Assembly (NCBI GenBank): GCA_017556765.1
Contig: JAFYME010000010.1
Span: forward strand, 1 to 39,138
Origin: Bacteroidales bacterium
Lineage (GTDB): Bacteria; Bacteroidota; Bacteroidia; Bacteroidales; UBA932
Reading direction: 5' to 3'
DNA: 39,138 nucleotides
This document shows, in pieces, positions 5,488-35,113 of this stretch. Positions within the stretch are counted from its first letter, which is position 1. The number at the start of each line of letters is the position of its first letter. The translations under genes were made by a program, and so were the position numbers. The notes beneath the pieces are model-generated. The model did not search any database, was not told the origin of the DNA, and saw only the letters and a list, made by a program, of their open reading frames with translations.

Positions 5488-8379
5488 ATGAAAAGAATCC
5501 TTAGCCTTATCATCTGCGGAGCGATGATGCTTGCCGGTCTGGCATCATGCGGCACTGCAGAAAAGGGTGCTAAAAGCATCAAGAGCGTCGAGAAGGTCAC
5601 AGTGGAGTCGCCGGAGGGAACTGTCCCAAGGCTTCCATACCAGCTGTGGGTAACCTACAACGACGGCACAGGAGCATACCGTCAGGTACGCTGGAGCAAC
5701 GCCGCATTGGCAGTGGAGAAGGAGCAGTCTGATCCGTCGCTCTATCCTGCAGGAAAGAAGTACACAATCGAAGGACACATCACAGGTGACAACAAGACAC
5801 CTAAGGGATACCCTGTAGTCGCAAAGATCACCGTGACAAAGGGTGAGTATGAGGTTCCGGGCAATACATTCAAGGCCCAGCCGCTCCCTCTTGACAAGGT
5901 TGTCATCAACGGCGACAACCGTCTTACCTCAAACCGCGACATGCTCATCGAGCAGGTCCTCAGCTGGGACATCACCCAGCAGCTCTACAACTATCGTGAG
6001 ACATACAACCTCAGCACAAAGGGCTATACCGAGTCTGACGGATGGGATTCACCTACAACCAAGCTCAAGGGCCACGGTTCAGGACACTACATGTCGGCTC
6101 TCGCATTCGCATTCGCCAGCGCTACAAAGCCTGAGCACAAGGATGCTCTCCGCGCAAGGATGAAGCGCATGACAGACGAGCTCCGCACATATCAGGAGAT
6201 GACCTTCGTATGGAACGAAGAGCTCGGCCGCTACTGGGAGGCACGCGACTTCGCTCCGGAGGAAGAGCTCCGCGAGATGAAGGGTACATGGGCCGCTTTC
6301 AAGGAGCACCAGAAGGATTGGGCGAAGTACGGATACGGCTACATCAACGCCATCCCTGCACATCACCCTGCCCTCATCGAGATGTACCGCGCATACAACA
6401 ACGAGCAGTGGGTATGGGCTCCATACTACTCTATCCACAAGCAGCTCGCAGGTCTCATCGACATCGCTACATACGTTGACGACCCTGCAATCGCAGAGAA
6501 GGCCCTCAAGATCGCCACAGACATGGGTCTTTGGATCTGGAACCGTCTGAGCCACCGTACATATGTGAACACAGAGGGAACCCAGGAGGAGCGCCGCGCG
6601 AAGCCGGGTAACCGCTACGAGATGTGGAACATGTACATCGCAGGTGAGGACGGAGGTACAGGCGAGTCTCTCGCACGCCTTGCAATGCTCTCGAACGACG
6701 AGACAACAAGAGCACGCCTCCTCGAGGCTTCGAACTTCTTCGACAGCCCTGCATTCTACGAGCCGCTCTCGATCAATGTAGACGACATCCGCACACGCCA
6801 TGCAAACCAGCATATCCCTAAGATCATCAGCGCGTTGAGGAGCTATGTGGGCAACAACAACCCATACTACTACAACATCGCTCTCAACTTCTGGAACATG
6901 GTCCAGGGCCGCTATGCATACTCTACAGGCGGTGTGGGTAACGTAGAGATGTTCCGTCAGCCTTACACTCAGATCCTCAGCATGAACACAAACGTTCAGT
7001 CTGACCGCCACGGAAACCTCTACCCTAACCCTACCCTCAACGAGACATGCTGCGTATACAACCTCGCGAAGCTCACAAAGGATCTCAACTGCTTCGATCC
7101 GGACGACGCACGCTACATGGACTACTACGAGCGAGTTCTCTACAACCAGCTCATCGGTTCGGTAGACCCTCACCACTACGGCGTGACTTACCACTATGCA
7201 GTAGGTCTTGACGCAAGCAAGCCTTTCGGCAGCGAGACTCCGCAGTCTACATGCTGCGGCGGTACAGGTTCGGAGAACCACACAAGATACCAGGAGGCTG
7301 CATACTTCGTGAACGACAACACCATCTGGGTAGCCCTCTACATGCCTACAACAGCAACATGGGACGCAAAGGGCGTACAGCTCACCCAGGACTGCCTCTG
7401 GCCTGCAGAAAAGTCTACCATCACAGTGAAGGGTTCAGCTGACTTCGCAATGAAGCTCCGCGTTCCTTACTGGGCAACAGAGGGCTTCGACGTGAAGCTC
7501 AACGGCAAGTCGATCGCCAAGTCATACCAGCCATGTTCATATGTGGAGATTCCTTCACGCACATGGAGCGAAAGCGACGTGGTTGAGGTCGTGATGCCTT
7601 TCACAAAGCACATCAACTACGGTCCTGACAAGATGACTGTCGCAGCTACAGGCATGAACGAGACAAACACAGTGTTCACTCCGATGTGGGTAGGTACACT
7701 CATGTACGGTCCTCTCGCCATGTCTACAGACGCTGTAAGAAGCTGGGATGACGCCCTCCTCAACCTTGACTCGGCCCTCGAGTGCGTACAGGTCAACACT
7801 CCTACAGCAGAGGCGGGTACTGACGGCAACATCTACACCCTCACAGTGGGCGACATGACATTCTACCCTGACTACTACCTCTGCGAGCACTCTACACGCT
7901 ACCTCCGCATCAATATGGACAACGCCCTTGAGAACGCATCGGCTGCCGGCATCATCGACAAATCAGCTCTCGAGGAAGGCGTAATCCTCGCAAGATCACG
8001 CAAGGAGGCGCAGGAGGCATGGAACGCAATGGAAGTGAAGGTTCCTGATCACGCTCCATGGGCACCGCACGCATACGGCAGAATGGTCGAGCAGCTCGCT
8101 CAGGCCGAGGAGATAATGGCAGGTAAGGAGTTCACTCAGGAAGAGGTGAACAACGCTACAGCCCTCCTCAACGCAGCGATCAACACAATGCGTCCAGGTA
8201 ACCTTCCTGAGCTTGAGGACCTCAACGAACTTCTCCAGCTTGTCAAGGAAGCAAAGGACAAGAACGATCCTAAGCAGAAAGAGGCCATCGACTACGCCGA
8301 AATGGTCATCAGATACGTAAGCAACGGATCAGGTACAATGGACATGATCATCAAGGGCTGCGAGCAGCTTAAGAAATAA
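5488..8379 (+). CDS. Beta-L-arabinofuranosidase, GH146/GH127 superfamily (DUF1680), lipoprotein
   Basis: Predicted exo-acting glycoside hydrolase releasing terminal beta-L-arabinofuranose by a zinc-bound Cys nucleophile. The 963-residue protein has a lipoprotein signal (LASC, Cys22), a bacterial Ig-like (Big_4-type) domain at about 30-115 (SPEGTVPRLPYQLWVTYNDG), the catalytic (alpha/alpha)6 and beta region at about 125-790, and a helical, charged C-terminus (about 800-963) resembling FIVAR-type helices. The zinc/nucleophile set is visible as E519-T-C521 and C589-C590 in TCCGGTGSENH, matching the Glu-x-Cys ... Cys-Cys pattern of HypBA1 and the GH146 ESCNTYN/WCCVGSGMENH style, so GH146 is favoured over GH127. 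Family members next to ara genes are known in B. thetaiotaomicron. It is monocistronic and divergent from the arabinose operon; a perfect hairpin terminator follows. Confidence 0.85.
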   Translation: MKRILSLIICGAMMLAGLASCGTAEKGAKSIKSVEKVTVESPEGTVPRLPYQLWVTYNDGTGAYRQVRWSNAALAVEKEQSDPSLYPAGKKYTIEGHITGDNKTPKGYPVVAKITVTKGEYEVPGNTFKAQPLPLDKVVINGDNRLTSNRDMLIEQVLSWDITQQLYNYRETYNLSTKGYTESDGWDSPTTKLKGHGSGHYMSALAFAFASATKPEHKDALRARMKRMTDELRTYQEMTFVWNEELGRYWEARDFAPEEELREMKGTWAAFKEHQKDWAKYGYGYINAIPAHHPALIEMYRAYNNEQWVWAPYYSIHKQLAGLIDIATYVDDPAIAEKALKIATDMGLWIWNRLSHRTYVNTEGTQEERRAKPGNRYEMWNMYIAGEDGGTGESLARLAMLSNDETTRARLLEASNFFDSPAFYEPLSINVDDIRTRHANQHIPKIISALRSYVGNNNPYYYNIALNFWNMVQGRYAYSTGGVGNVEMFRQPYTQILSMNTNVQSDRHGNLYPNPTLNETCCVYNLAKLTKDLNCFDPDDARYMDYYERVLYNQLIGSVDPHHYGVTYHYAVGLDASKPFGSETPQSTCCGGTGSENHTRYQEAAYFVNDNTIWVALYMPTTATWDAKGVQLTQDCLWPAEKSTITVKGSADFAMKLRVPYWATEGFDVKLNGKSIAKSYQPCSYVEIPSRTWSESDVVEVVMPFTKHINYGPDKMTVAATGMNETNTVFTPMWVGTLMYGPLAMSTDAVRSWDDALLNLDSALECVQVNTPTAEAGTDGNIYTLTVGDMTFYPDYYLCEHSTRYLRINMDNALENASAAGIIDKSALEEGVILARSRKEAQEAWNAMEVKVPDHAPWAPHAYGRMVEQLAQAEEIMAGKEFTQEEVNNATALLNAAINTMRPGNLPELEDLNELLQLVKEAKDKNDPKQKEAIDYAEMVIRYVSNGSGTMDMIIKGCEQLKK

Positions 8380-8401
8380 TCACAACCGACATAACAACCA
8401 A

Positions 8402-8437
8402 AAAAGAGGAAAACCATCATACCGGTTTTCCTCTTTT
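8402..8437. terminator. Bidirectional intrinsic terminator between GH146-like gene and HTCS
   Basis: A perfect 14-bp stem, AAAAGAGGAAAACC (8402-8415) with GGTTTTCCTCTTTT (8424-8437), and an 8-base loop. A- and T-rich ends allow use in both directions, for the plus-strand hydrolase gene and the minus-strand HTCS gene that converge here. Confidence 0.9.
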
Positions 8438-8441
8438 CTGT

Positions 8442-12380: not shown

Positions 12381-12383
12381 ACG

Positions 12384-12423
12384 AAAAAAGTTGCATCTTT
12401 GATAACAAAGATACAACTTTTTT
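12384..12423 (-). terminator. Strong intrinsic terminator upstream of HTCS
   Basis: An 18-bp stem (12384-12401 with 12406-12423) around a 4-base loop; on the minus strand the only non-Watson-Crick pair is a G-U wobble, and the 3' arm ends in TTTTTT. It should end the operon after the 12449-13750 gene. It finishes only 3 bases before the HTCS ATG, so HTCS must have its own promoter or depend on read-through. Confidence 0.85.
12406..12413 (-). promoter_or_regulatory. Possible HTCS -7 box inside the terminator stem
   Basis: On the minus strand TATCTTTG fits TAnnTTTG. A start about 7 bases downstream would give an HTCS leader of roughly 18 bases. No TTTG appears at the -33 distance, and the element is embedded in the hairpin, so this is only a candidate. 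Confidence 0.35.
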
Positions 12424-12448
12424 ATTTCATGGATATTATATGCCGGAT

Positions 12449-13750
12449 TTAATATCTGACGGCATAAGGCCACTGGTCGTCAAAGACTTCCTCTCCTTCT
12501 TCCTGATCGAAGCTGAAAGGATTCATCTTGTGCTCGGTCGGAGCTCCCATGACTACGAGCCAGAGATGTGAAAGAGGAGCCTCTGGGGCCTCGAACGAGA
12601 TCGTTCCCTCGGCGGCCGAGTTCATTTCACCGTATATTGACTTGCCGTCATCCTGACGTACAGCTACAAAGCCATAGCGCCATCCCGCCTTCGACGGATC
12701 TGCATTCTTATAGCCTTCCATGCCAGCGCAGCCCTTGAACTCCACATCGATCCTCTCGCCTGCAGCCGGTACAGGAAGAGCGACCGCATTGAATCCATAG
12801 TTCTCAGGACACTGCTCAGGAGCCACATATCTCCATCCGTCCTCACCCTCTATAAGGCTGGTAGTGAACTTGTTGGCATTAGGTCGGGTCTCCTCCCATG
12901 CTCTTTCATAGTCAAGGTTGATGATACGTCTTGTGGCTTCATACATCTCGTCGCAGAACTGCTCCTGGGTAAGGTTGTTCACCCTCATGTATGTCATCGC
13001 AGGATCCTCTCCCCTCTTTCCCTGACGGTAGAGTTCGGCGATATGCTTCAGGCCTCTCTTATCTCCCCAATGCTCGAGGATATACGGAGTATGGTAGATG
13101 TTGGTCATATGGAGGTAAGCCTTGTGAGCCTTGCTTGTGAAGCCGTCCCAATGGTATGCCTCGTCCTGCACCCAGAGCGGGTTCACCTGCCAGAGCATCC
13201 ACTGCGAGGTCATCTCGAAGAAGCCGTGGCCTCCCCATGCCTCACCTTCACCGTCGCATGAGATCTGCGACTGGAAGGAGTGTCCGAGCTCATGAGCGAT
13301 ACAGTTCAGACGCTCGTCGCGAAGACGTCCCGGAGTCACCCAGAGAGCGCCGATCTCTCCGTCATAGTCTCCGCCGTATGCGGTTCCCTCGAGAGAGTAA
13401 CGGAGCATCACCATCATACGGTACCTGTCACACTTCGAACCCTTCTTCGCAAAGCCGAGATCATTGTAGAAATAATCATAGAATGTCTCGAGCTTCTCCT
13501 TGAGGTTCTCAAGGTCTATGGTCATGTCATGTCCTTCAAGTTCAGGGGCGGCTGAAAGGTCGTTGCCGAAGCCCTTCTCCCAGAAGATCACGAAATTCTC
13601 TGTGAGAGCTGACCTTTCGTAGCAATATTCGCTCTCAGGATCGTTGAGATCCATTCCATGAAGGTCCTTAGGGACATATATTTCCTTCTCCTTCACCCCG
13701 CATGAAGCGAGAAGCAGCAGCATGGCTGCCATCATGAATAATCTTTTCAT
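12449..13750 (-). CDS. DUF6055-like zinc metallopeptidase lipoprotein
   Basis: Predicted surface lipoprotein (MKRLFMMAAMLLLLASCG, lipobox Cys) of 433 residues. It has an HExxH zinc motif, HELGH at 153-157, followed by Glu179 in FFEMTSQW, the layout of a gluzincin. The C-terminal region (about 290-433) forms a beta-rich unit ending SHLWLVVMGAPTE and DDQWPYAVRY, shared with the 18016-20322 product (YFVVLGAPIE, DDQWPYKVKF), so the two are paralogues. Substrate is unknown; peptidase activity is inferred from the motif. I start at 13750, because the longer frame from 13933 lacks a signal and overlaps the CotH gene. It lies 4 bases after the CotH stop and is the last gene before a strong terminator. 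Confidence 0.8.
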   Translation of the reverse strand: MKRLFMMAAMLLLLASCGVKEKEIYVPKDLHGMDLNDPESEYCYERSALTENFVIFWEKGFGNDLSAAPELEGHDMTIDLENLKEKLETFYDYFYNDLGFAKKGSKCDRYRMMVMLRYSLEGTAYGGDYDGEIGALWVTPGRLRDERLNCIAHELGHSFQSQISCDGEGEAWGGHGFFEMTSQWMLWQVNPLWVQDEAYHWDGFTSKAHKAYLHMTNIYHTPYILEHWGDKRGLKHIAELYRQGKRGEDPAMTYMRVNNLTQEQFCDEMYEATRRIINLDYERAWEETRPNANKFTTSLIEGEDGWRYVAPEQCPENYGFNAVALPVPAAGERIDVEFKGCAGMEGYKNADPSKAGWRYGFVAVRQDDGKSIYGEMNSAAEGTISFEAPEAPLSHLWLVVMGAPTEHKMNPFSFDQEEGEEVFDDQWPYAVRY

Positions 13751-13754
13751 ATCG

Positions 13755-15107
13755 TCAGTCGAGTTGTACGTATCGGTTGAATATAGGAGTGAGGTGGGAG
13801 ACTCTGTAGGAGAGCCAGCTGTACATGTTGGCGATCTCCGTAGCAAAGTTGATTTCCTCCTGCGGCCAGTTGTCTGAAGGGAAGTAGATAGGCCATCTCT
13901 GCGAATTGCGCACCATGGCATTTTCCGCCGCATTGATGTACTTTTCAGTGTTTGCCCACACCTCGGTCATTATGAGCGGGCTGATCTCCTCCCAGCGGGC
14001 TATGAACTCTTCGCAGAACTCGTCGCTTCTGAACATGTCGGTAAAGAATTCAGGCACCCAATAGGATCCGGCATGATGAATGGGATCCGGTCCAAGCACA
14101 TATTCCCTGTAATCTTCAAAGAAATGATGGCCGTCTGTCATGGTTCCCCAATCGAAGTCAAATCCGGCATCAAAATCCCAGAGAGGGCCCATTACCCATT
14201 TGCCGCCCTTGTCCTTATGCATGTACATGCTACGAGGAGCGGCAAGCTCCACATTGTACACAAGTTCCTGAATGATAAGAAAATCAATAAACGACTGAAC
14301 ATCAAGAAGTTCACGAACCTTATCCATTCCTGCCTTGATGGCCGCAGCATTGCCCTTGCTCTTGCGTATGCTGAGGATTGCCGACTCCAGCTGGGCGAAG
14401 TCCTTTTTGATGCCGGTTACATCTATATCCTCCGGAAACTTCACACATACAGGCATCTGATAGATCTCCGACCAGAAGTTGTCCTTGGAAGAAGAATGCT
14501 CCGGACCATCATCAACGTCAAGAGCGATGAGAACTCCCTCGACATCATCGACCGCCACGCGGTTCTTTCCCTGCTCGATCTGCTCGGTAAGCTGATACAG
14601 ACCGATATATTCTCCGTTGAGAGTCACTTCCATATAACGGGAATGATTGGTATATGGCATTCCCATGACATGTCCCAGCTCGAAAACGAAGGTGTTCATC
14701 ATATGGGTCGGATCACGGAAATTGGCAAGAAGGACCCAATCCTTCTCAGCGGCAAGGCCGACTATCGAAGCCTTCTCGTCAAGCTTGATGCGGTACGGCT
14801 TCTTATCATACCACTCCCATGTGGAGTTTCCTCGACCGCGGATACGTCCTGTTCCTGTATAGTCCCACTGATCGTCCGGATGATCCACGGTAATGGTGCA
14901 GTTGACATAATCCTCCTTCTCCTTTCCTTTGATCGGAGCGCCGTTTTCAGTCGTGATGTCCATTACAGCCACGGCATGGGCTGCGCTCACAACCGGCGGT
15001 TCGGGCTGAGGATCCGGCTGTGGATCAACACCGTTTGTGTCATCTCCGCAGGCCGCCATCATAAAGACGGCGGCAAGCGGCATAAAGAACTTCAATCCTT
15101 CTCTCAT
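13755..15107 (-). CDS. CotH-family protein kinase-like lipoprotein
   Basis: A 450-residue lipoprotein (MREGLKFFMPLAAVFMMAACG) of the CotH family, an atypical secreted kinase fold first known from spore coat CotH. Characteristic blocks are GRIRGRGNSTWEW, KKPYRIKLDEKASIVGL, KDWVLLANFRDPTHMMN, LNGEYIGLYQLTEQI, GKNRVAV and GPLWDFDAGFDFDWG, the last with the metal-binding D311/D313. The key residues therefore look intact. CotH proteins are common in Bacteroidota but their target here is unknown; an extracytoplasmic protein or glycan could be phosphorylated, or the domain may act structurally. Its ATG overlaps the upstream stop by one base (TAATG), so it is translationally coupled to the zincin gene. 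Confidence 0.88.
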   Translation of the reverse strand: MREGLKFFMPLAAVFMMAACGDDTNGVDPQPDPQPEPPVVSAAHAVAVMDITTENGAPIKGKEKEDYVNCTITVDHPDDQWDYTGTGRIRGRGNSTWEWYDKKPYRIKLDEKASIVGLAAEKDWVLLANFRDPTHMMNTFVFELGHVMGMPYTNHSRYMEVTLNGEYIGLYQLTEQIEQGKNRVAVDDVEGVLIALDVDDGPEHSSSKDNFWSEIYQMPVCVKFPEDIDVTGIKKDFAQLESAILSIRKSKGNAAAIKAGMDKVRELLDVQSFIDFLIIQELVYNVELAAPRSMYMHKDKGGKWVMGPLWDFDAGFDFDWGTMTDGHHFFEDYREYVLGPDPIHHAGSYWVPEFFTDMFRSDEFCEEFIARWEEISPLIMTEVWANTEKYINAAENAMVRNSQRWPIYFPSDNWPQEEINFATEIANMYSWLSYRVSHLTPIFNRYVQLD

Positions 15108-23488: not shown

Positions 23489-26143
23489 CTACTTGTTTCC
23501 GAAAGTGATGTTTACACCTACAGAGAATGTGCGGAGAGTAGGATACTTCTCACGATAGTCCATACCGAATGATGAATAACCTGAATAGTTAAGCTCTGGA
23601 TCAAGACCCTGATACTTTGTGAAGCAGAGAAGGTTCTCGCCTGAGAGGTAAACTCTTGCCTTGTCGAGGTACTTCACGTTCTTTGTGTTGAATGTGTAAC
23701 CTACTGTGAAGTTGTCGAGCTTGAGGTAGTCACCGTCCTCGAGGTAGTAGCTTACTGCAACCGGCTGCTGGCTCTTTGCGAGAGTAGTTCCGTACACTGG
23801 CTGAGTTGCTGACTTGTAACGGTTGAGACCGATATTGAGGTTTTCATAGAACATTCTCTGGCAGTTGAAGATCTTGTATCCGAACTGACCGCTGAATGAC
23901 ATTGTAACGTCTACACCGTAGAAGCGGAGAGTGTTGCTCCAACCCATTGTAAGCTTAGGAAGAGCTGAACCGCAATACTGACGGAATCTAGAGTCGTAGT
24001 TACGCATACCTGATTCGAAAGGAACTGCATCCTCTACTGCCTCACCTGGGATATCCGGATCGTCGATGAGCCAGAGACCCTTCTCCGGACCTGACTGAAC
24101 TACACCTACAGCCTTAAGCATATAGAAGCTTCCGATTGCGTCGCCGATGTAAGTTCTCTGGGTTACCATTGAAGTAGGCTCCTCTGTCCAACCGCCGTCG
24201 AGATAGTTTTCAGTCTCATAGAGGTCGTTAGACATGTTGATGAGCTTGTTCCTGTTGTGAGCGAGTGTGAGGGTAGTATTCCACTCGAAGTTCTTTGCCT
24301 GGATTGGCGAACCACCGATGAGAACCTCGATACCCTGGTTGCTCATGCTACCTACGTTAGCAGTAGTATAACCATAGAGGTTTGGTGGAACAGGCACTGA
24401 GTACTCCCAGAGCATGTCTGAAGTCACCTTATTATAAAGGTCGATGTTTGCATAGAGACGGTTTCCGAAGAATCCGAGGTCGAGACCGATGTTGTACTCT
24501 GTTGACTTCTCCCATCTGAGGTCAGGGTTAGCATTTGAAATAGGAGAAAGTGAAGGAGACCATACACCGTTTGCGTCTACGTAGTTTCCGTAAGATGTGT
24601 CATAGTCATATCTCAGGAGAGACATGTATGATGAACTTGGGATGACACCTGTGATACCGAATGAAGCACGGAGCTTCAAGTTGTCGAGCCAGCTTCTTGT
24701 GCCTTCCATCCACTCCTCGTTAGAGATTGTCCAACCTGCTGAGATACCAGGGAAGTTACCCCACTTGTGATCAGCACCGAACTTTGATGATCCCTCGTGA
24801 CGGAGAGAGAGGAGGACGTTGTATCTGTCAGCATAACCGTAAGAGATACGTCCGAAGAAACCGATGAGTCGGCTTGAATTCTTCCATGAACCCATACCTG
24901 CCTTACCGTCCTTGAGGTAAGTACCGTTTGCGAGGTTATTATAAAGGTATGCGTTAGTAGAGAACTCTGAGTTGTTTGCACTGAAGCCTGAGCTTACAGA
25001 GTTGAGCCAGCTGTAACCTACGAGAGCAGAAATACGGTGCTCGCCGAAAGTATTCTCATACTTTGAAGTGAGCTCGAGCATGTGCTCCTCGAAGTCGCTC
25101 TGGCTCTTGCTTGCGCTACCGTTGATACCGCCCCAGCGGTTTGACTGATACTTCTCAGTGTTGTATGACTCGCCTACACCGTTGTTTGTACGGCTTGAGA
25201 GCATGAGGTTTGTCTGCCATCCCTCGATAGGCTCGAGAGTGATGTTACCTGTAAGACGTGTGCTCTCGTTTCTTGACTGTCCGAAGTGCTCGTTACCAGT
25301 GATGTATGGAAGCGGGTTGTAGTAGTAGAGAGGAGCTGACTGCTCGAAGTAGTCGCCGTCTTCAGTATATACAGGTGAGGTCGGGTTACGTGTAACCGCC
25401 TGATGATAAATGTAGTATGAAGACTGGTTATCATTCTCTGAGATAGACTTCAACATGTTGAAGTTGAGCTTGAGGATATCGTCGAAGAGATACTGCGAGA
25501 TGTCCATCTGAGCACGGAGGTCGTTTGCGAAAGAGCCCTTGATCACACCCTCGTTCTGACGGTATGACACGTTAGCCGAATAAGTCATGCTCTGTGTACC
25601 ACCTTCGAGAGATACGTTGTGGTTCTGAACCCAACCTGTCTGTGAAACGAGGCCGAGCCAGTCAGTATCCTCGCCGAGGTCTGCGAAAGCCGAATACTTA
25701 GGAAGGTCATCACCGAGAGCACGCATGTACTCTGCATCCATGAAGTCGGCAGTCTTTGCGAAGTTCGAGATAGAACCGTAGCCTGAATAAGAAACATTGT
25801 ATCTGTCGCCACGCTTACCGGACTTGGTTGTGATGATGATCACACCGGAAGCACCACGTGTACCGTAGATAGCGGCTGCAGATGCGTCCTTGAGGACAGA
25901 GATCTCAGCGATGTTCTCAGGAGCAACAGTCTCGAGCGAACCTTCGATACCGTCAACGAGCACGAGCGGAGTGAAACCTCCCATGAGGGATGTCACACCA
26001 CGGAGCATGATGGTAGAAGACTCTGAAGGGTTACCTGTACCCTTAGCGATGTTAAGACCTGCTACCTTACCCTTGATGAGCTGAGCAGCGTCACCGATGT
26101 TACCTGTAAGGAAGTCGTCAGCCTTAACGCTTGCGACAGCCGA
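23489..26143 (-). repeat. Large inverted repeat, arm 1 (susC plug and barrel)
   Basis: This part of the first susC is homologous to 36140-38695 in opposite orientation. Blocks such as the one encoding SPVYTEDGDYFEQS (near 25340-25385) are almost identical at base level to the other copy. About 10 kb separates the arms. Confidence 0.85.
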
Positions 26144-26554
26144 GGTGATATCACCCTTACGCTGTGTACCGTAACCCACAACAACTGTCTCAGAAAGCAT
26201 GAGCGCATCCTCTGAAAGAGTCACGTTGATTGTTGTACGGTTTCCTACAACTTCTTCAACCTCTGCAAAACCGAGAGCGTTGAATACGAGGACTGCATCT
26301 GATGGAAGTCCTGACAAGGTATAATGACCGTCAGCATCTGTGCTGGTACCGACAGTCGAATTACCCTTAAGGAAGACACCTACTCCAGGAACCGGACCGA
26401 CTTCGTCCGACACAACTCCTGAAACCGTCTTACCCTGAGCGAACGCCTCATTTGGCGCTACAGCCATGCCGATAACGAGAGCCAGAAGCACTGCGAGAGT
26501 CCTCTGACCGAATGTACCAAGACAGGCTGCACATTTTTTAAAATGTTCAATCAT
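23489..26554 (-). CDS. SusC-like TonB-dependent outer-membrane transporter
   Basis: Full-length 1021-residue transporter that imports oligosaccharides together with SusD, energized by TonB. It has a signal peptide ending near AFAQ, a carboxypeptidase-D regulatory-like domain at about 42-118 (KTVSGVVSDEVGPVPGVGVFLKGN), a TonB-box region at about 121-135 (SETVVVGYGTQRKGD), the plug (about 138-270, with VLKDASAAAIYGTRGASGVI) and the 22-strand barrel ending FSVGVNITFGNK. It is first in the minus-strand PUL operon, with a -7 box upstream. From residue 138 onward it is closely related to the product of 36014-38695. Confidence 0.95.
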   Translation of the reverse strand: MIEHFKKCAACLGTFGQRTLAVLLALVIGMAVAPNEAFAQGKTVSGVVSDEVGPVPGVGVFLKGNSTVGTSTDADGHYTLSGLPSDAVLVFNALGFAEVEEVVGNRTTINVTLSEDALMLSETVVVGYGTQRKGDITSAVASVKADDFLTGNIGDAAQLIKGKVAGLNIAKGTGNPSESSTIMLRGVTSLMGGFTPLVLVDGIEGSLETVAPENIAEISVLKDASAAAIYGTRGASGVIIITTKSGKRGDRYNVSYSGYGSISNFAKTADFMDAEYMRALGDDLPKYSAFADLGEDTDWLGLVSQTGWVQNHNVSLEGGTQSMTYSANVSYRQNEGVIKGSFANDLRAQMDISQYLFDDILKLNFNMLKSISENDNQSSYYIYHQAVTRNPTSPVYTEDGDYFEQSAPLYYYNPLPYITGNEHFGQSRNESTRLTGNITLEPIEGWQTNLMLSSRTNNGVGESYNTEKYQSNRWGGINGSASKSQSDFEEHMLELTSKYENTFGEHRISALVGYSWLNSVSSGFSANNSEFSTNAYLYNNLANGTYLKDGKAGMGSWKNSSRLIGFFGRISYGYADRYNVLLSLRHEGSSKFGADHKWGNFPGISAGWTISNEEWMEGTRSWLDNLKLRASFGITGVIPSSSYMSLLRYDYDTSYGNYVDANGVWSPSLSPISNANPDLRWEKSTEYNIGLDLGFFGNRLYANIDLYNKVTSDMLWEYSVPVPPNLYGYTTANVGSMSNQGIEVLIGGSPIQAKNFEWNTTLTLAHNRNKLINMSNDLYETENYLDGGWTEEPTSMVTQRTYIGDAIGSFYMLKAVGVVQSGPEKGLWLIDDPDIPGEAVEDAVPFESGMRNYDSRFRQYCGSALPKLTMGWSNTLRFYGVDVTMSFSGQFGYKIFNCQRMFYENLNIGLNRYKSATQPVYGTTLAKSQQPVAVSYYLEDGDYLKLDNFTVGYTFNTKNVKYLDKARVYLSGENLLCFTKYQGLDPELNYSGYSSFGMDYREKYPTLRTFSVGVNITFGNK

Positions 26555-26621: not shown

Positions 26622-26650
26622 TATAACGCACGCGTGCTCGAGGGCCACTT

Positions 26651-28773: not shown

Positions 28774-28794
28774 CTAACTGATACACAACCAATA

Positions 28795-31212
28795 ATGAGA
28801 AAAACCCTTTTGACAATTGCAGCCTGCCTGGCCTTGACGTCAGGTTCGGCTCTCGCACAGACGATGCGCCATGACGCACCGGGTGCGGCCAATCCGGTTA
28901 TTCCCGGCTATTTCGCCGACCCGACCGTAAAGAAGTTCGGGGACACATTCTACATGTATGCTACGACAGACGGCAGCGGTGCAGGATTCGGTCCTGCGCA
29001 GGTATGGGTCAGCAAGGACTTCATGAACTGGACGCTCATGCCTATGAACTGGCCTGACACCCACTGGATCTGGGCTCCGGACTGCATGCAGCACACAGAC
29101 GGCAAATATTATTTCTATTACTGCCAGCCATGTACAATCCACGGCGGTGTCAGCGAGACTCCGCGCGGACCATGGACAAACCTCCTCGGCGAGAGTGACG
29201 CGGTGATGATCGAGGACCGCTTCGTATTCAATGCGATCACCCTCGACGGACAGACATTCGTGGACGATGACGGCTCCGTATACATGTATTGGGGAACATG
29301 GGGCATCTACGAAGGCTTCGGCTGCGGTTCAGGAAAGCTCAATCCGGACATGAAGTCATTCTCCGAGACCCGCCTCATTCCTAACACAGAGGTCACAGAC
29401 TTCTTCGAGGCTCCTTTCGTGATCAAGAGAAACGGCACATACTACTTCATGTATTCGTCTGACAGCTGCCATGACCATACATACCATGTGCAGTATGCGA
29501 CTTCAGACAAGCCGCTCGGCCCATATACATACCGCGGCACAATCCTCGAGACCAATGCAGACCGTACTGTAGACGGCCCGGGACACCACAGTATCCTTCA
29601 GGACGGCGACGACTATTATATAGTATACCACCGTCACGACAATCCGCACTCAAACCGCGGATTCCACCGTCAGCTCTGCATCGACAAGATGGAGTTTGCT
29701 GAGGACGGAAGCATCAAGAAGATCGTTCCGACCCACGAAGGCATCGGCCTCCTTGCTCCTTCTGTCGTAAAGAGCGAAAACCTCGCTTACCAGTGCAAGG
29801 TACGCGTATCTTCATACTATGACGACTTCTTCAAGCCTGAATTTGCCGTAGACGACAACAACGGAACACTCTGGAGACCACGCGGAATGGGACAGGAGTG
29901 GATCGAGCTCGACCTGGGAAAGGCTCAGAAGATCCAGACCATCTGGACACAGTTCGAATACGGAACACAGTTCTATCAGTACCTCATCGAGACTTCGAAG
30001 GACGGAAAGAACTGGGAGATCTTCGCTGACAAGCGCGACAACCGCCTTGCAGGCAGCCCTATGGTCGATTTCGGCAATGCAAAGGCACGTTATATCCGCA
30101 TAACCACAACCGGCGGACAGAAGAACGGCTTCAACGGAGCGATCTGGAACATAAAGGTTTACGGCGGCATAGAGGAGGCAAATCCACAGCAGTGGCTCGG
30201 CCTTACTGCAGCCGACTGGAACGGACGCGAGTGGAAGAACAACGAAGGTATGCTCGGAGGCTCATTCAAGATCGAGAAGGGCCATGTAAGCACAGGACGC
30301 TTCGCAGGACGCGACGCCATCATCCTCGCCCCTAACACCGTCCTTTCATACGAAAACAAGCTCATTTCTCCATCCAAGGAGCACACTCTCAGCGCTATGA
30401 CTTACAGAAACGGAGAGTGGACAGCATATGATCCGGCCCTTGCAGAAGGCAAGATCACAATCAGCAGCGGCGCTGAGAATCTCATCGTGACAAACCTCCG
30501 CTACTACAACTGGAAGCAGGACAAGTTCGAGACAGAATATGACCTCAGGACAGACATCGTACGCATGCCTGTGGCAGACTGGAACAAGAAGGGACTTCTC
30601 GTGGACATCGAGGCTGAGGAATTCGAGGCCGGAGACACCCTCTACTGGGGATTCGAGAACCGCGGAACCCTCGGCGGAAACTTCGAGCCAGTATCGCATC
30701 GCGGTGAGCCTGCAATCGTCAAGGAAATCGAGGGCAAGCTCGGTATCCACTTCACAGGAGAGCAGGTATTCCAGTCGGATTTCGCTATGCCGGCTACAGT
30801 ACGCGACAATGCTCCATACACTCTCGAGGCATGGATCCTCAACGAGGAAATCGCTCTGAATGAGTGTGTTGCAGACTTCACAAGCAGCCACGACGAGCTC
30901 GAGAAGATCATGTTCGTGAACGGAACAGAGCCTCGCTGCGGCGTGATGAACCACTACGCATGGTATGAGGATGCAGGATGGGAGGACGTGAAGAACCTCG
31001 CAGGAAAATGGCAGCACATCTATGTATGTTTCGACGGCCGTATCGAGCAGGTATGGATCAACGACATGCTTGTAAGCGAGAAGGACATCCAGATCATGGT
31101 CAAGCCGTCACAGTTCGTGCTCCTGGGACGCAATGCAGAGCACGAATGGCCATTCACCGGCTACCTCAACTCACTCAAGTTCTGGGACGAATACATCCCG
31201 TACAGGAAATAA
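28795..31212 (+). CDS. GH43 glycosidase with discoidin-like and LamG-like C-terminal domains
   Basis: An 805-residue secreted enzyme (signal peptide ending GSALAQ). The five-bladed GH43 domain at about 33-325 shows the three carboxylates: Asp42 in YFADPTV (base), Asp151 in TLDGQTFVDDDG (pKa modulator) and Glu205 in DFFEAPFVIK (acid). An F5/8 type C (CBM32-like) domain follows at about 335-465 (FAVDDNNGTLWRP, ARYIRITTTGG). The C-terminus at about 620-805 looks like a concanavalin/LamG-type sandwich (YTLEAWILNEE, KWQHIYVCFDG). Alpha-L-arabinofuranosidase is the best guess from the neighbours; beta-xylosidase or exo-galactanase cannot be excluded. It begins 21 bases after GH97. Confidence 0.85.
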   Translation: MRKTLLTIAACLALTSGSALAQTMRHDAPGAANPVIPGYFADPTVKKFGDTFYMYATTDGSGAGFGPAQVWVSKDFMNWTLMPMNWPDTHWIWAPDCMQHTDGKYYFYYCQPCTIHGGVSETPRGPWTNLLGESDAVMIEDRFVFNAITLDGQTFVDDDGSVYMYWGTWGIYEGFGCGSGKLNPDMKSFSETRLIPNTEVTDFFEAPFVIKRNGTYYFMYSSDSCHDHTYHVQYATSDKPLGPYTYRGTILETNADRTVDGPGHHSILQDGDDYYIVYHRHDNPHSNRGFHRQLCIDKMEFAEDGSIKKIVPTHEGIGLLAPSVVKSENLAYQCKVRVSSYYDDFFKPEFAVDDNNGTLWRPRGMGQEWIELDLGKAQKIQTIWTQFEYGTQFYQYLIETSKDGKNWEIFADKRDNRLAGSPMVDFGNAKARYIRITTTGGQKNGFNGAIWNIKVYGGIEEANPQQWLGLTAADWNGREWKNNEGMLGGSFKIEKGHVSTGRFAGRDAIILAPNTVLSYENKLISPSKEHTLSAMTYRNGEWTAYDPALAEGKITISSGAENLIVTNLRYYNWKQDKFETEYDLRTDIVRMPVADWNKKGLLVDIEAEEFEAGDTLYWGFENRGTLGGNFEPVSHRGEPAIVKEIEGKLGIHFTGEQVFQSDFAMPATVRDNAPYTLEAWILNEEIALNECVADFTSSHDELEKIMFVNGTEPRCGVMNHYAWYEDAGWEDVKNLAGKWQHIYVCFDGRIEQVWINDMLVSEKDIQIMVKPSQFVLLGRNAEHEWPFTGYLNSLKFWDEYIPYRK

Positions 31213-31247
31213 TTTTTTACTATCATAATAACTAACACAACAGACAA

Positions 31248-33656
31248 ATGAAAAGATTTATTGCTACATCTCTTCTTGCTGTGATCGCCGTAACTGGCTT
31301 TGCACAGGATAAGAAGCAGCAGTCACATGGTTATCCTATTGACCCTGTGCCATTTACATCAGTAAAGGTTACTGATGCATTCTGGGGCCAGCGCCTCCAG
31401 GCAAGCCGTGAGACAACAATTCCGCTCGCTTTCAGCAAGTGTGAGGAGACAGGTCGTTACGAGAACTTCGTAAAGGCAGCCAACCCAAGCGACTCTTATG
31501 AGGTAGGCGGTCTTGCATTCGACGACACTGACGTTTACAAGACTATCGAGGGTGCAAGCTACCTTCTCCAGACTTATCCGGACAAGAAGCTTGAGGCTTA
31601 CATCGACAGCGTTCTCGTTATCGTGAAGGCAGCTCAGGAGCCTGACGGATACCTCTACACAAGCCGTACAATGAACCCTAAGCATCCGCACGAGTGGGCT
31701 GGTACAGAGCGTTGGGAGCTTGTAGAGGACCTCAGCCATGAGTTCTACAACCTCGGTCACATGGTAGAGGGTGCAATCGCACACTACCAGGCTACAGGAA
31801 AGCGCAACTTCCTTGACATCGCCATCGCTTACGCTGACTGCGTATGCCGCGAGATCGGTGACGGCGCAGACCAGGTAGTACGCGTACCGGGCCACCAGAT
31901 CGCTGAGATGGCTCTTGCTAAGCTTTACCTTGTTACAGGAGAGAAGAAGTACCTCGACCAGGCCAAGTTCTTCCTTGACAAGCGTGGCTACACAACACGT
32001 ACAGACGAGTACAGCCAGGCTCACAAGCCGGTTCTCGAGCAGGATGAGGCTGTAGGACACGCAGTACGTGCAGCTTACATGTACGCAGGTATGGCTGACG
32101 TTGCCGCTCTTACAGGAGACCAGGGCTACATCGACGCTATCGACGCCATCTGGGACAACATCGTTACAAAGAAGCTCTACATCACAGGTGGTATCGGAGC
32201 TACAAGCAACGGTGAGGCTTTCGGTGAGAACTACGAGCTTCCTAACATGTCAGCATACTGCGAGACTTGCGCAGCCATCGGAAACGTTTACGTGAACCAT
32301 CGTCTCTTCCTCCTCCACGGAGAAAGCAAGTACTACGATGTTCTCGAGCGTACTCTCTACAACGGTCTTATCTCAGGTGTATCACTCGACGGTGGCGGAT
32401 TCTTCTATCCTAACCCTCTCGAGAGCATCGGCCAGCACCAGCGTCAGCCTTGGTTCGGCTGCGCATGCTGCCCTTCAAACATCTGCCGCTTCATCCCTTC
32501 ACTCCCAGGTTATGTATATGCTACAAAGGGTTCTGACGTTTACGTAAACCTCTTCATGTCAAATACTTCCAACCTTACTGTAAACGGAAAGAAGGTTCAG
32601 CTCTCACAGGAGACAAGATATCCATGGAACGGTGACATCGCCATCACTGTCGACAACAACAAGGCTAAAGCATGGACAATGAAGGTCCGTATCCCAGGTT
32701 GGGTACGCGGTCAGGTTGTTCCTAGCAATCTTTACGAGTACACTGACGGAAAGCGTCTCGGCTACAGCATCACCGTAAACGGCGAGAAGGTTGAGAGCGA
32801 GCTCCAGAACGGTTACTTCTGCATCAACCGCACATGGAAGAAGGGTGACGTTGTACGCGTTCACTTCGACATGGAGCCACGTACAGTGAAGGCCAACTAC
32901 AAGGTAGAGGCAGACCGCGGACGCATCTCTGTAGAGCGTGGTCCTATCGTTTACTGCGCAGAGTGGCCGGACAACGACTTCGACGTTCTCTCTATCCTCA
33001 TGAACCGCGAGCCTAAGTTCGAGGTTGTAGAGCGCCCAGACCTTCTTTACGGTCTCAACCAGCTCACAACAGACGCTCAGGTACTCAACTATGACGACAA
33101 CGGCCGTCTCGTTGCCGAGGACGTGAAGCTAACTCTCATCCCTTACTATGCATGGTGCCACAGAGGCAGCGGTTCAATGGCAGTATGGCTTCCACAGGAG
33201 CTTACAGCTACACGCCCTACAATGCCTGCAACACTCGCATCTGTCAGCAAGCTCGACGCTTCTACAAAGACTTCATCACTCAAGTCTATCGCTGACCGCC
33301 TCGTACCGAAGGATGAGTTCGACAGATCAATGCCTTACTACCACTGGTGGCCTGCACAGGCAACAACAGAGTGGATGACATACGAGTTCCCAGAGCCTGC
33401 AACTATCAAGAGCTCAACAGTTTACTGGTTTGACGACGGCCCATGGGGCGGTTGCCGCGTTCCAAAGTGGTGGAAGATCTACTACATGGACGAAGCCGGT
33501 GAGTGGCAGGAAGTACAGAACCCTGACAAGTATGAAACCGTAAAGGGTGCTGCAAACACAGTGAACTTCGATCCTGTTACCACAAAGAAGGTGAAGCTTG
33601 AGGTTCGTCAGCCAGACGACAACTCGGCAGGTCTCTTCGAGTGGGAAGTAAGATAA
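31248..33656 (+). CDS. GH127 beta-L-arabinofuranosidase
   Basis: Secreted 802-residue GH127 enzyme (signal peptide MKRFIATSLLAVIAVTGFAQ). It matches the HypBA1 active site: Glu323 in NGEAFGEN (acid/base position, 16 residues before the zinc Glu), Glu339-T-Cys341, and Cys407-Cys408 in GCACCPSN, with a Cys as nucleophile. HypBA1 of Bifidobacterium removes beta-L-Araf from hydroxyproline-linked arabino-oligosaccharides of extensin. An extra C-terminal beta domain (about 660-802, ATTEWMTYEFPEPATIKSST ... KVKLEVRQPD) resembles a discoidin fold. It is last in the three-enzyme operon, 35 bases after GH43. Its codon use appears richer in GTT/GCT than the two genes before it. Confidence 0.92.
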   Translation: MKRFIATSLLAVIAVTGFAQDKKQQSHGYPIDPVPFTSVKVTDAFWGQRLQASRETTIPLAFSKCEETGRYENFVKAANPSDSYEVGGLAFDDTDVYKTIEGASYLLQTYPDKKLEAYIDSVLVIVKAAQEPDGYLYTSRTMNPKHPHEWAGTERWELVEDLSHEFYNLGHMVEGAIAHYQATGKRNFLDIAIAYADCVCREIGDGADQVVRVPGHQIAEMALAKLYLVTGEKKYLDQAKFFLDKRGYTTRTDEYSQAHKPVLEQDEAVGHAVRAAYMYAGMADVAALTGDQGYIDAIDAIWDNIVTKKLYITGGIGATSNGEAFGENYELPNMSAYCETCAAIGNVYVNHRLFLLHGESKYYDVLERTLYNGLISGVSLDGGGFFYPNPLESIGQHQRQPWFGCACCPSNICRFIPSLPGYVYATKGSDVYVNLFMSNTSNLTVNGKKVQLSQETRYPWNGDIAITVDNNKAKAWTMKVRIPGWVRGQVVPSNLYEYTDGKRLGYSITVNGEKVESELQNGYFCINRTWKKGDVVRVHFDMEPRTVKANYKVEADRGRISVERGPIVYCAEWPDNDFDVLSILMNREPKFEVVERPDLLYGLNQLTTDAQVLNYDDNGRLVAEDVKLTLIPYYAWCHRGSGSMAVWLPQELTATRPTMPATLASVSKLDASTKTSSLKSIADRLVPKDEFDRSMPYYHWWPAQATTEWMTYEFPEPATIKSSTVYWFDDGPWGGCRVPKWWKIYYMDEAGEWQEVQNPDKYETVKGAANTVNFDPVTTKKVKLEVRQPDDNSAGLFEWEVR

Positions 33657-33684
33657 TTTTTTTCATAGTGTTTTTATTAAGGCA

Positions 33685-33731
33685 AGACTCTTACCTTTAA
33701 TGATTTATAATCAAAGACAAGGTAAGGGTCT
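33685..33731 (+). terminator. Hairpin after GH127, possible terminator or leader structure
   Basis: AGACTCTTACCTT (33685-33697) pairs with AAGGTAAGGGTCT (33719-33731) with one G-U pair and a 21-base loop. The following TTTGATTT is a poor U-tract, so termination is uncertain; it may partly separate the CAZyme operon from the aminopeptidase gene 95 bases downstream. Confidence 0.5.
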
Positions 33732-33751
33732 TTGATTTAGACAGATCGGAA

Positions 33752-35113
33752 ATGTTTTCAAAAGAGACCTATAAAGACAGACGCGAGGCCTTGAAAAAAA
33801 GCGTCGGAAGCGGTGTTCTCCTCTTCCTTGGCAACGAGGAAGTCGGAATGAACTATGCCGACAACACCTACCGTTTCCGTCAGGATTCGACTTTCCTGTA
33901 TTTCTTCGGCCTTGATTATGCCGGACTGGCCGCCGTGATCGACATCGACAACGACAAGGAAATCATCTTCGGCAACGAGCTCACTATCGACGACATAGTA
34001 TGGATGGGAACACAGCCTACATTGAAGGAGAAAGCCTTCAGCGTCGGCATCGTGGAGACCCAGCCTTTGAACAGCCTCAAGGATTATATCGAGAAGGCCA
34101 TGGCAAAGGGACAGACCATCCATCATCTTCCTGTCTACAGGGCTGAGCATACCGTGATACACTCCCTGATCGGCAAGGTGACCGAAGCCTCAATTCCATT
34201 CATCAAAGGAGTGGTGAACCTGAGGAACTACAAGACCGCGGAGGAGATCGTCGAGCTTGAGCGTGCATGTGACGTGACTGCAGACATGCATATCGCAGCC
34301 ATCAAGACTGCACGCGTAGGAATGAAGGAATACGAAGTGGCAGCAGCTCTTGAAGCCGTAGCTCAGGCAAACGGATGCTTCGTTTCATTCCCTACCATCG
34401 CCACAGTCAACGGACAGACCCTCCACAACCATTACCATGGAAACACCATCAAGGAGGGAGACATGGTCCTCATAGACGCAGGTGCGGAAACCGCCATGGG
34501 ATATTGCGGAGACATGTCTTCTACAATCTGTGCCGGAAAGACATTCTCTTCAAGGCAGAAGGAAATCTACGACATACAGGTTGCATCACACCTCGCGGCA
34601 GTGCAGGCCCTGAAGCCTGGAGTGCGTTTCAGCGATGTATATGACCTTTCATGCAGAGTGATCTGCGAAGGCCTGAAGGGCCTCGGAATCATGAAGGGAG
34701 ACCCTGCAGAGGCCGTTGCAGCCGGAGCCCATGCGATGTTCTTCCCTTGCGGACTTGGACATATGATGGGACTTGACGTCCATGACATGGAAAACCTCGG
34801 AGAGGTATGGGTCGGATATGACGGACAGCCTAAGAGCACTCAGTTCGGACGCAAGTCGCTCCGTCTTGCACGCCCTCTGGAGCCTGGATTCGTCCTCACG
34901 ATCGAGCCTGGAATCTATTTCATTCCTGAACTCATCGACCTGTGGAGATCAGAAGGCCGCTTCAAGGATTTCATCAATTACGATAAGGTCGAGACATACA
35001 AGGACTTCAGCGGTCTGAGAAACGAAGAAGACTATCTCATTACCGAAACAGGAGCCCGCAGGCTTGGAAAGAAGATTCCGTTAACGACAGAAGAAGTGGA
35101 GGCATTACGATGA
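33752..35113 (+). CDS. pepP: Xaa-Pro aminopeptidase, M24B family
   Basis: Cytoplasmic dinuclear-metal aminopeptidase that removes the N-terminal residue preceding proline. The 453 residues comprise the AMP_N domain (about 1-140) and the pita-bread catalytic domain. Metal ligands are visible: Asp242 and Asp254 in DAGAETAMGYCGD, His337 in CGLGHMMGLDVHD, then Glu in TIEPGIYF and Glu in YLITETGARRLG. No signal peptide is present. Its stop overlaps the start of the EamA transporter gene by 4 bases (ATGA). In this locus it could finish degradation of (hydroxy)proline-rich peptides; it may equally be a housekeeping enzyme. Confidence 0.92.
   Translation: MFSKETYKDRREALKKSVGSGVLLFLGNEEVGMNYADNTYRFRQDSTFLYFFGLDYAGLAAVIDIDNDKEIIFGNELTIDDIVWMGTQPTLKEKAFSVGIVETQPLNSLKDYIEKAMAKGQTIHHLPVYRAEHTVIHSLIGKVTEASIPFIKGVVNLRNYKTAEEIVELERACDVTADMHIAAIKTARVGMKEYEVAAALEAVAQANGCFVSFPTIATVNGQTLHNHYHGNTIKEGDMVLIDAGAETAMGYCGDMSSTICAGKTFSSRQKEIYDIQVASHLAAVQALKPGVRFSDVYDLSCRVICEGLKGLGIMKGDPAEAVAAGAHAMFFPCGLGHMMGLDVHDMENLGEVWVGYDGQPKSTQFGRKSLRLARPLEPGFVLTIEPGIYFIPELIDLWRSEGRFKDFINYDKVETYKDFSGLRNEEDYLITETGARRLGKKIPLTTEEVEALR

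What the first reader, a model, noticed from the sequence alone, without database searches (positions are those of the whole stretch)
5488..35113. Possible utilization locus for extensin-type hydroxyproline-rich glycoproteins
The locus combines two Cys-nucleophile beta-L-arabinofuranosidases (GH146-like and GH127), a GH43 (candidate alpha-L-arabinofuranosidase), a retaining Asp-type GH97 (candidate alpha-galactosidase), three surface HExxH lipoproteins, a Xaa-Pro aminopeptidase and a complete L-arabinose pathway. Plant extensins carry beta-L-Araf chains on hydroxyproline (with a terminal alpha-L-Araf on some) and alpha-Gal on serine, on a Pro/Hyp-rich backbone. Each linkage has a matching enzyme class here, and the peptidases would be out of place in a plain arabinan or arabinogalactan locus. 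The gene content is seen in the sequence; the substrate is inferred.
Basis: partly seen in the sequence, partly recalled or inferred. Interest (0 to 1): 0.78.

Follow-up and report, generated by a model that had tools for sequence, protein, structure and literature searches.

The report
Gut-bacterial locus for digesting extensins
A gut Bacteroidales bacterium carries a set of genes, recurring in related gut bacteria, that looks built to capture, cut and eat extensins, the sugar-coated structural proteins of plant cell walls, which would make it a protein-plus-sugar counterpart of the well-known polysaccharide-digestion loci.

Summary
The genes are present and the substrate guess gains independent support. 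Two of the three HExxH lipoproteins are DUF6055 proteins, distant relatives of the Pectobacterium Svx peptidase: 21 of 21 scanned match the Svx model, below its cut-off. Svx was shown to cleave extensins (PMC13164431). SusC/SusD with DUF6055, and variously DUF4859, CotH, GH43, GH127, GH97 and HTCS, recur in six other Bacteroidales families. DUF6055, a beta-arabinofuranosidase and an alpha-galactosidase coincide in 14 of 104 loci (13 distinct, window included), six distinct ones also with a proline exopeptidase, M24 or DPPIV. DUF4859 is nearly confined to DUF6055 loci: a candidate arabinosyl-peptide-binding module. Best reading: a PUL-type system for whole hydroxyproline-rich glycoproteins, a plant counterpart of mucin PUL BT4240-50. 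Corrections: the orphan zincin is lineage-specific, M24/EamA are optional, araB is cut by the contig end. Against: 16 of 26 DUF6055 clusters lack a PF07944 gene within 20 kb, Svx's arabinan-recognizing C-terminal domain is not matched, and nothing here has been assayed.

The parts
2..964 (-). araB (ribulokinase), cut by the contig end
   Evidence: NCBIfam NF003154, 438 bits vs cut-off 428; contig is 39138 bases
973..2577 (-). araA, L-arabinose isomerase
   Evidence: NF002795, 739.7 bits vs 622
2540..3232 (-). araD, L-ribulose-5-phosphate 4-epimerase
   Evidence: NF006047 381.2 vs 257 bits; PF00596
3234..5219 (-). sodium:solute symporter, candidate arabinose importer
   Evidence: PF00474 1.3e-58; TIGR00813 above cut-off
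5488..8379 (+). GH146-like beta-L-arabinofuranosidase, lipoprotein; candidate for Araf-beta-Hyp
   Evidence: PF07944 2.1e-47; 5opj 2.6e-40, 8k7y 4.8e-26; ETC and CC motifs; relatives at 53-93% near DUF6055 in L072, L073, L084, L115, L126, L130, L133
8442..12473 (-). hybrid two-component system regulator (HTCS)
   Evidence: Reg_prop, Y_Y_Y, HisKA, HATPase, receiver, AraC-type HTH; relatives in 36 of 80 DUF6055a loci
12449..13750 (-). DUF6055a: Svx-related gluzincin, lipoprotein (HELGH 153-157, third ligand candidate E179)
   Evidence: PF19527 2.7e-139; Svx model 5.1e-18; H153 E154 H157 E179 invariant in 21 of 21
13755..15107 (-). CotH-fold kinase-like lipoprotein, role unknown
   Evidence: PF08757 5.6e-47; 7-sequence alignment A3; in 23 of 80 DUF6055a loci
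15107..16798 (-). orphan zincin lipoprotein (HEYIH-x16-E); lineage-specific, not core
   Evidence: no Pfam at E up to 1; no PDB relative; 3 of 295 genomes; absent between DUF6055b and CotH in L073
16823..17830 (-). DUF4859 lipoprotein, candidate surface glycan-binding protein
   Evidence: PF16151 3e-18
18016..20322 (-). DUF6055b: BACON + Svx-related gluzincin + C-terminal DUF4859, lipoprotein
   Evidence: PF19527 6.7e-133, PF16151 2.3e-23, PF13004; Svx model 3.4e-13
20337..21506 (-). DUF4859 lipoprotein in the position after SusD, candidate surface glycan-binding protein
   Evidence: PF16151 3.8e-14
21561..23462 (-). SusD
   Evidence: PF07980 6.5e-20
23489..26554 (-). SusC
   Evidence: TIGR04056 721.8 bits
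26797..28773 (+). GH97 retaining alpha-galactosidase; candidate for alpha-Gal on Ser
   Evidence: NF053844 873.3 vs cut-off 800; 3a24 2.1e-204
28795..31212 (+). GH43 + CBM32-like + LamG; candidate alpha-1,3-L-arabinofuranosidase
   Evidence: PF04616 3.6e-51; 5msx 1.8e-52; linkage not tested
31248..33656 (+). GH127 beta-L-arabinofuranosidase + F5/8-type domain
   Evidence: PF07944 1.4e-125; 6ex6 1143.8 bits, 4qjy, 3wkw
33752..35113 (+). M24 Xaa-Pro aminopeptidase, no signal peptide seen
   Evidence: PF00557 4.9e-49, PF05195; next to DUF6055a in L080-L082 and L089
35110..36006 (+). EamA transporter, candidate amino-acid exporter
   Evidence: PF00892; next to DUF6055a or M24 in 7 of 80 loci

Best explanation
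A polysaccharide-utilization-type locus for whole extensin-like hydroxyproline-rich glycoproteins. Proposed steps, all inferred from homology and gene context: SusD and the DUF4859 lipoproteins hold arabinosylated glycoprotein at the cell surface; the lipoprotein gluzincin DUF6055b, which carries its own DUF4859 domain, cuts the backbone; SusC imports glycopeptides; GH43 takes off the terminal alpha-1,3-Araf, GH127 the beta-1,2-Araf, the GH146-like enzyme the Araf on Hyp, GH97 the alpha-Gal on Ser; DUF6055a trims further, perhaps in the periplasm; the Xaa-Pro aminopeptidase finishes Pro-containing peptides in the cytoplasm and EamA may pass amino acids on; the symporter and AraBAD use the L-arabinose; the HTCS senses a breakdown product.
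For: DUF6055 matches the Svx model in 21 of 21 proteins given (21 of the 27 found in the fetched loci and window); Svx cleaves extensin (PMC13164431). Zinc-site residues invariant in 21 of 21. SusC/SusD 42-50% identical with DUF6055 in 6 of 23 fetched loci, six families. DUF6055 + beta-arabinofuranosidase + alpha-galactosidase in 14 of 104 loci, 13 distinct. Swapped parts for the same chemistry: DPPIV at 51-72% identity in six loci besides none in the window (L079 = G165, G219, L092, L095, L096, L108), M24 in L080, L081, L082, L089, L145, GH27 in G219, L077, L084, L143. Ara genes within reach in 4 of 80 loci, L072, L099, L100, L148. DUF4859 in 8 of 295 genomes above 30 bits, all 8 among the 18 with strong DUF6055. 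No galactanase, pectin lyase or arabinanase family was hit among the 20 window proteins.
Against: 16 of 26 DUF6055 clusters have no PF07944 within 20 kb and 11 of 80 clade-A loci hold none of the partners sought, so DUF6055 alone is no marker. Match to Svx is far below the curated cut-off (65 vs 625 bits) and stops at model position 441 of 601, so the Svx C-terminal part, whose arabinan-recognizing domain is needed for extensin cleavage, is not matched. PF07944 proteins of over 420 bits also stand far from DUF6055 (G106:C2, G137:C240, G023:C39, G258:C5), and the nearest solved GH127, 6ex6, is by my recall BT3674 of an arabinogalactan locus. M24 and EamA orthologues sit together away from the locus in G165. 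A crude lipobox test was positive in only 16 of 69 clade-A and 22 of 39 clade-B relatives. GH43 linkage unknown. No assay.
Confidence: 0.74

Rival explanations
1. An arabinogalactan-protein (AGP) locus: GH127/GH146 remove beta-Araf caps, GH43 alpha-Araf, GH97 alpha-Gal from AGP glycans, and the peptidases cut the AGP backbone.
For: Nearest solved GH127 is 6ex6, which I recall as BT3674 of an AGP locus; GH146 Bll3HypBA1 acts on Araf-beta1,3-Araf of AGPs (passages of PMC10850190); AGPs also have Hyp backbones.
Against: No galactanase or galactan-side-chain family (GH43_24 not typed; GH16, GH2, GH35, GH30, GH154, PL27) was hit by Pfam among the 20 window proteins. Docking work holds that the Svx pocket takes alpha-glycosylated but hardly beta-galactosylated Hyp (passages of PMC9266454).
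Confidence: 0.12
2. A plain arabinan or RG-I side-chain locus that happens to carry peptidases for access.
For: GH146 BT0349 is an arabinan/RG-I enzyme (passage of PMC10850190); the window continues into an arabinose operon.
Against: No GH51, endo-arabinanase equivalog above cut-off (AbnA, AbnB and BT0367 models far below cut-off for the GH43) or pectin lyase in the window; two DUF6055 zincins, an alpha-galactosidase, and in relatives DPPIV, M24, M43 or GH27 would be unexplained.
Confidence: 0.06
3. DUF6055 peptidases of this locus act on another plant glycoprotein of the same class (solanaceous lectins, leucine-rich-repeat extensins, arabinosylated seed or fibre proteins) rather than on cell-wall extensins as such.
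For: Solanaceous lectins carry the same Ser-Hyp4 arabinosides (introduction of PMC6085000); nearest relatives come from rectum of goat and water deer (L072, L073), whose diet I infer to be plants of many kinds.
Against: None tested; the enzymes would be the same.
Confidence: 0.06

Closest known systems
Mucin O-glycoprotein PUL BT4240-50 of Bacteroides thetaiotaomicron (PMC11992087; abstract and one Results section seen)
   Same: SusC/SusD, a surface glycan-binding lipoprotein, a lipoprotein glycopeptidase with its own binding domains, exo-glycosidases and sugar metabolism in one locus aimed at protein and glycan together
   Different: Plant instead of animal glycoprotein; DUF6055 instead of M60-like peptidase; DUF4859 instead of CBM32 as shared module; beta-arabinofuranosidases and alpha-galactosidase; HTCS instead of sigma/anti-sigma; function not tested
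Svx peptidases of Pectobacterium and Dickeya (PMC13164431 abstract and Results; passages of PMC9266454 and PMC10815107)
   Same: Gluzincin-type HExxH peptidase with downstream Glu; homologous by profile; proposed plant extensin substrate
   Different: Svx is a secreted virulence protein with a C-terminal acyltransferase-like domain that is not matched here; DUF6055b has a C-terminal DUF4859 domain instead; here the setting is a nutrient-uptake locus of a gut bacterium
HypBA1/HypBA2/HypAA cluster of Bifidobacterium longum and XCV2724/2728/2729 of Xanthomonas euvesicatoria (PMC6085000 abstract and introduction; PMC10850190 passages)
   Same: GH43 and GH127/GH146 enzymes for Hyp-linked arabinofuranosides
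   Different: No GH121 HypBA2 here (the HypBA2 model matched only the F5/8-type domain of the GH127, E 8e-6); those clusters are described for the sugar chains, here peptidases and an alpha-galactosidase are in the set, with SusC/SusD uptake

Membership tests
Polysaccharide utilization locus (Bacteroidota) | adjacent SusC and SusD genes | tested here: met
   23489-26554 and 21561-23462
Polysaccharide utilization locus (Bacteroidota) | linked sensor-regulator and carbohydrate-active enzymes | tested here: met
   HTCS 8442-12473, GH127, GH146-like, GH43, GH97
Polysaccharide utilization locus (Bacteroidota) | co-induction by a substrate | not testable with these tools
   needs RNA-seq
DUF6055 (PF19527) | match above Pfam cut-off with HExxH site kept | tested here: met
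   465 and 444 bits vs cut-off 27; zinc-site residues invariant. One Aspergillus paper places a DUF6055 protein in MEROPS M106 (passage of PMC11241649)
Svx/AvrXca family (NF040510) | score above curated cut-off 625 bits over the full 601 positions | tested here: not met
   65 bits, positions 60-263 and 312-427: a relative, not a member
Svx/AvrXca family (NF040510) | cleavage of extensin | not testable with these tools
   needs assay
GH127 | PF07944 with zinc-binding Glu/Cys and Cys nucleophile motifs | tested here: met
   E 1.4e-125; ETC and CC in line with 6ex6 and 4qjy
GH146 | closest to characterized GH146 enzymes, with E-x-C and CC motifs | tested here: met
   5opj, 8k7y, 8k7x ahead of GH127 structures; motifs kept; subfamily not built as a tree
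GH97 retaining alpha-galactosidase (NF053844) | score above curated cut-off | tested here: met
   873.3 vs 800 bits; KVDF motif at 408 in line with 3a24
HRGP-arabinoside GH121 pathway (HypBA2) | GH121 beta-L-arabinobiosidase | tested here: not met
   no GH121 catalytic match in the 20 window proteins

The most novel reading that the evidence does not exclude
A conserved gut-bacterial system that eats whole plant structural glycoproteins, sugars and Pro/Hyp-rich backbone together: DUF6055 is a commensal branch of the Svx-type extensin peptidases, DUF4859 is a new binding module for Hyp-arabinosides or extensin glycopeptides, and proline exopeptidases (M24 or DPPIV) have joined the locus in different lineages so that the peptide is used as food too.
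Probability: 0.5. Interest if true: 0.82.

Novelty: new variant of a known kind. Interest (0 to 1): 0.7.

Why it matters
Extensins and related hydroxyproline-rich glycoproteins reach the gut with plant food and forage, and bacterial use of them is described mainly for the sugar chains. A locus for the whole glycoprotein would name the missing peptidases, would give functions to DUF6055 and DUF4859, and would tie a plant-disease peptidase family to ordinary gut digestion. It is directly testable because cultured species carry forms of it: Bacteroides cellulosilyticus DSM 14838 (L075), Parabacteroides goldsteinii (L096), Bacteroides ihuae (L079), Xylanibacter ruminicola (L123). In a search of held PMC papers I saw no listing of an extensin PUL: terms extensin+GH127+PUL+Bacteroides, extensin+hydroxyproline+gut and others, extensin+SusC+PUL, extensin+SusD (5 papers), hydroxyproline-rich glycoprotein+polysaccharide utilization (2 papers), extensin+cellulosilyticus (3 papers), DUF6055 (1 paper). 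Most subscription papers are not held there. An in-silico proposal for HRGP use, by GH127, exists for Latescibacteria (passages of PMC4454575).

Tried and rejected
PDB sequence searches gave nothing for DUF6055a (0 hits up to E 10) and only chance-level hits for the orphan zincin. A 25-row DUF6055 tree (25 of the 27 proteins, one fragment and one without the motif string left out) showed a clade A and a clade B, but the test of the PUL label was uninformative: 2 changes against a shuffled mean of 1.9, 500 of 500 shuffles as low. In the clade that holds DUF6055b, 6 of 7 rows are PUL members.

I considered that M24 + EamA prove peptide use: rejected as proof, because in B. ihuae (G165) the pair's orthologues (72% and 62%) lie about 446 kb from the locus, and the eight locus-derived genomes searched were chosen for having them. 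I considered GH127 as a marker of the system: rejected, since close relatives stand far from DUF6055 in four genomes. I considered the orphan zincin as core: rejected (3 of 295 genomes).

Counting notes: one search used 29 of the 58 DUF6055 rows (those over 200 bits, less the second half of one split gene), 95 of 103 PF07944 rows, 87 of 91 CotH rows and 85 of 94 GH97 rows; fragments and weak rows were dropped. Of 25 DUF6055 clusters outside the window I fetched 23 (not G182:C183 and G258:C23). Of 313 relatives confirmed only the best 80 were kept by the tool; 40 of the 80 have full flanks; L093 and L105 are one contig, and L079 is the same locus as G165_C1. The DUF4859 overlap is partly built in, because DUF4859 is also fused to DUF6055b; the separate DUF4859 proteins next to SusD are the independent part.

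Full report
What is in the window. The window is one whole contig, C55, of a 1.55 Mb assembly that is 58% complete. Pfam and NCBIfam scans of the 20 main ORFs give, in order: araB (cut), araA, araD and a sodium:solute symporter on the minus strand; a GH146-like lipoprotein (+); then on the minus strand HTCS, DUF6055a, CotH, an orphan zincin, a DUF4859 protein, DUF6055b with BACON and DUF4859 domains, a second DUF4859 protein, SusD and SusC; then on the plus strand GH97, GH43, GH127, M24, EamA and a second SusC-like gene. DUF6055a starts at 13750, four bases after the CotH stop, with a lipobox-like start.

The zincins. DUF6055 is a Pfam family without assigned function. Both DUF6055 proteins match the NCBIfam Svx/AvrXca model, as do 21 of 21 DUF6055 proteins given to (21 of the 27 found), all well below the model's cut-off as far as shown (best E 1.4e-20). 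DUF6055a aligns at positions 60-263, which include the HExxH region, and 312-427; DUF6055b at 309-441; positions 442-601 are not matched. H153, E154, H157 and E179 are invariant in the 21-row alignment, the pattern of a gluzincin. For Svx the papers report HEXXHX(22)E (passage of PMC10815107); in DUF6055a 21 residues lie between, so the spacing is near but not equal. The 2026 paper states and shows that Svx degrades an extensin-rich fraction of carrot but not gastric mucin or concanavalin A, and that removal of the acyltransferase-like domain abolishes this (PMC13164431, abstract and Results). The inference to the window is by homology and context. One paper places an Aspergillus DUF6055 protein in MEROPS M106.

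The glycosidases. GH97 passes the curated cut-off for retaining alpha-galactosidase. GH127 is nearest to 6ex6, the GH146-like protein to 5opj and 8k7y; their E-x-C and CC motifs are kept. GH43 has its three acidic motifs, but its nearest solved relative 5msx does not fix the linkage. Published work: GH43 HypAA cuts the terminal alpha-1,3-Araf, GH121 and GH127/GH146 enzymes take the beta-Araf, with GH146 Bll4HypBA1 and XeHypBA1 acting on Araf-beta-Hyp. No GH121 is here; GH127 HypBA1 is reported to act on Ara2-Hyp and Ara3-Hyp too.

The locus recurs. In 295 genomes of the order, 43 have a DUF6055 match, 21 above cut-off and 18 (window's included) above 200 bits. Around 23 of the 25 other strong clusters, SusC at 47-50% and SusD at 42-48% identity are found with DUF6055 in 6 loci of six families: G219, G247, G136, G078, G165, G211. 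With them stand CotH in 5 of 6, GH127 in 5 of 6, GH43 in 5 of 6, GH97 in 3 of 6 and tandem-DUF4859 proteins in 5 of 6. G165 has no CotH and no DUF4859; G136 has no GH in reach. The other 17 loci lack this SusC/SusD. Against random placement PF07944 is enriched near DUF6055 (10 of 26 clusters, 1.76 expected), and against GH97 and CotH anchors in the same genomes (8 of 73 and 2 of 65).

In a scan of named genomes the best 80 of 313 relatives of DUF6055a were kept. Among them: DUF6055b 39, HTCS 36, SusC or SusD of the same kind 30, beta-arabinofuranosidase 27, CotH 23, alpha-galactosidase 19, GH43 12, EamA 7, M24 5, DPPIV 5, arabinose genes 4, M43 2; 11 have none. Flanks are full in 40 of 80, so these are lower bounds. 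Over all 104 loci, DUF6055 + beta-arabinofuranosidase + alpha-galactosidase coincide in 14 (13 distinct: L079 and G165_C1 are one locus); 7 of these (6 distinct) also hold M24 or DPPIV, and 10 (9 distinct) GH43. The nearest kin, MAGs from goat and water-deer rectum (L073, L072), share SusC at 95% and the GH146-like protein at 93% and 88%.

Same chemistry, different parts. P. goldsteinii, B. ihuae and G219 have a DPPIV-type peptidase next to the GH127, 64-72% identical to each other, and L092, L095, L108 have relatives at 51-57%, while the 7 genomes checked hold 2-7 DPPIV_N matches each. L081 and L082 run SusC, SusD, DUF6055b, DUF6055a, M24, EamA, GH97, GH43, GH127 on one strand. GH27 at 75-80% stands in G219, L077, L084 and L143; an M43 peptidase stands between DUF6055b and CotH in L074. 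These replacements are what one expects of a system whose substrate has a proline-rich backbone and alpha-galactose. Caution: genomes with M24 in the locus keep a second M24 at 44-51% in 5 of 6 cases, but the M24-EamA pair lies elsewhere in B. ihuae.

DUF4859. Besides its place at the end of DUF6055b it forms separate lipoproteins of up to five repeats after SusD. All 36 matches in the 18 DUF6055 genomes lie within 20 kb of DUF6055 (30) or on two contigs of G182 that hold SusC, SusD and DUF4859 (6). In the order sample 12 of 295 genomes match; 8 exceed 30 bits and all 8 are among the 18 with strong DUF6055 (hypergeometric 3e-11; 1e-8 without the window and one of a same-family pair); the other 4 are at or below 25.7 bits and outside the 18. 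The fusion makes part of this overlap automatic. The reading as a binding module for arabinosylated peptides is mine.

Comparison. The design is that of the mucin PUL BT4240-50, moved to a plant glycoprotein. It is not filed as an Svx member (cut-off not met) nor as the GH121 pathway (no GH121). Verdict: real, conserved, and most likely a hydroxyproline-rich-glycoprotein utilization locus; the substrate remains to be shown.

Noticed in passing
window 13755-15107 (-): A CotH-fold kinase-like lipoprotein is a frequent member of the locus (23 of 80 DUF6055a loci); the motifs RGRGNSTW and WDFDAGFDFDW hold invariant residues in 7 of 7 sequences aligned. What a kinase fold does outside the cytoplasm here is unexplained.
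   Followed up: partly
window 15107-16798 (-): Orphan zincin HEYIH-x16-E without Pfam match, in 3 of 295 genomes; the G108 copy stands in another locus with SusC and CotH, and the G032 contig has two copies in tandem.
   Followed up: partly
window 36014-38695 (+): A second SusC-like protein of 893 aa without the usual N-terminal CarboxypepD-type domain; probably the start of a further locus cut by the contig end.
   Followed up: no
L074, L075, L076 (about 16.2-19.7 kb): A tricorn-type S41 peptidase (88-98% identical) follows the HTCS in three Bacteroides species.
   Followed up: no
G258:C23:142594-143837: A DUF6055 gene split over two overlapping frames, possibly a decayed copy; two GH97 genes lie 6-11 kb away.
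   Followed up: no
L131: A contig filed as a Roseburia MAG carries DUF6055a (51%) followed by GH97 (59%); either gene transfer or mis-binning.
   Followed up: no
L099, L100, L148, L072: Arabinose genes lie near the DUF6055 locus in Muribaculaceae-type loci as well as in the window's nearest kin.
   Followed up: partly
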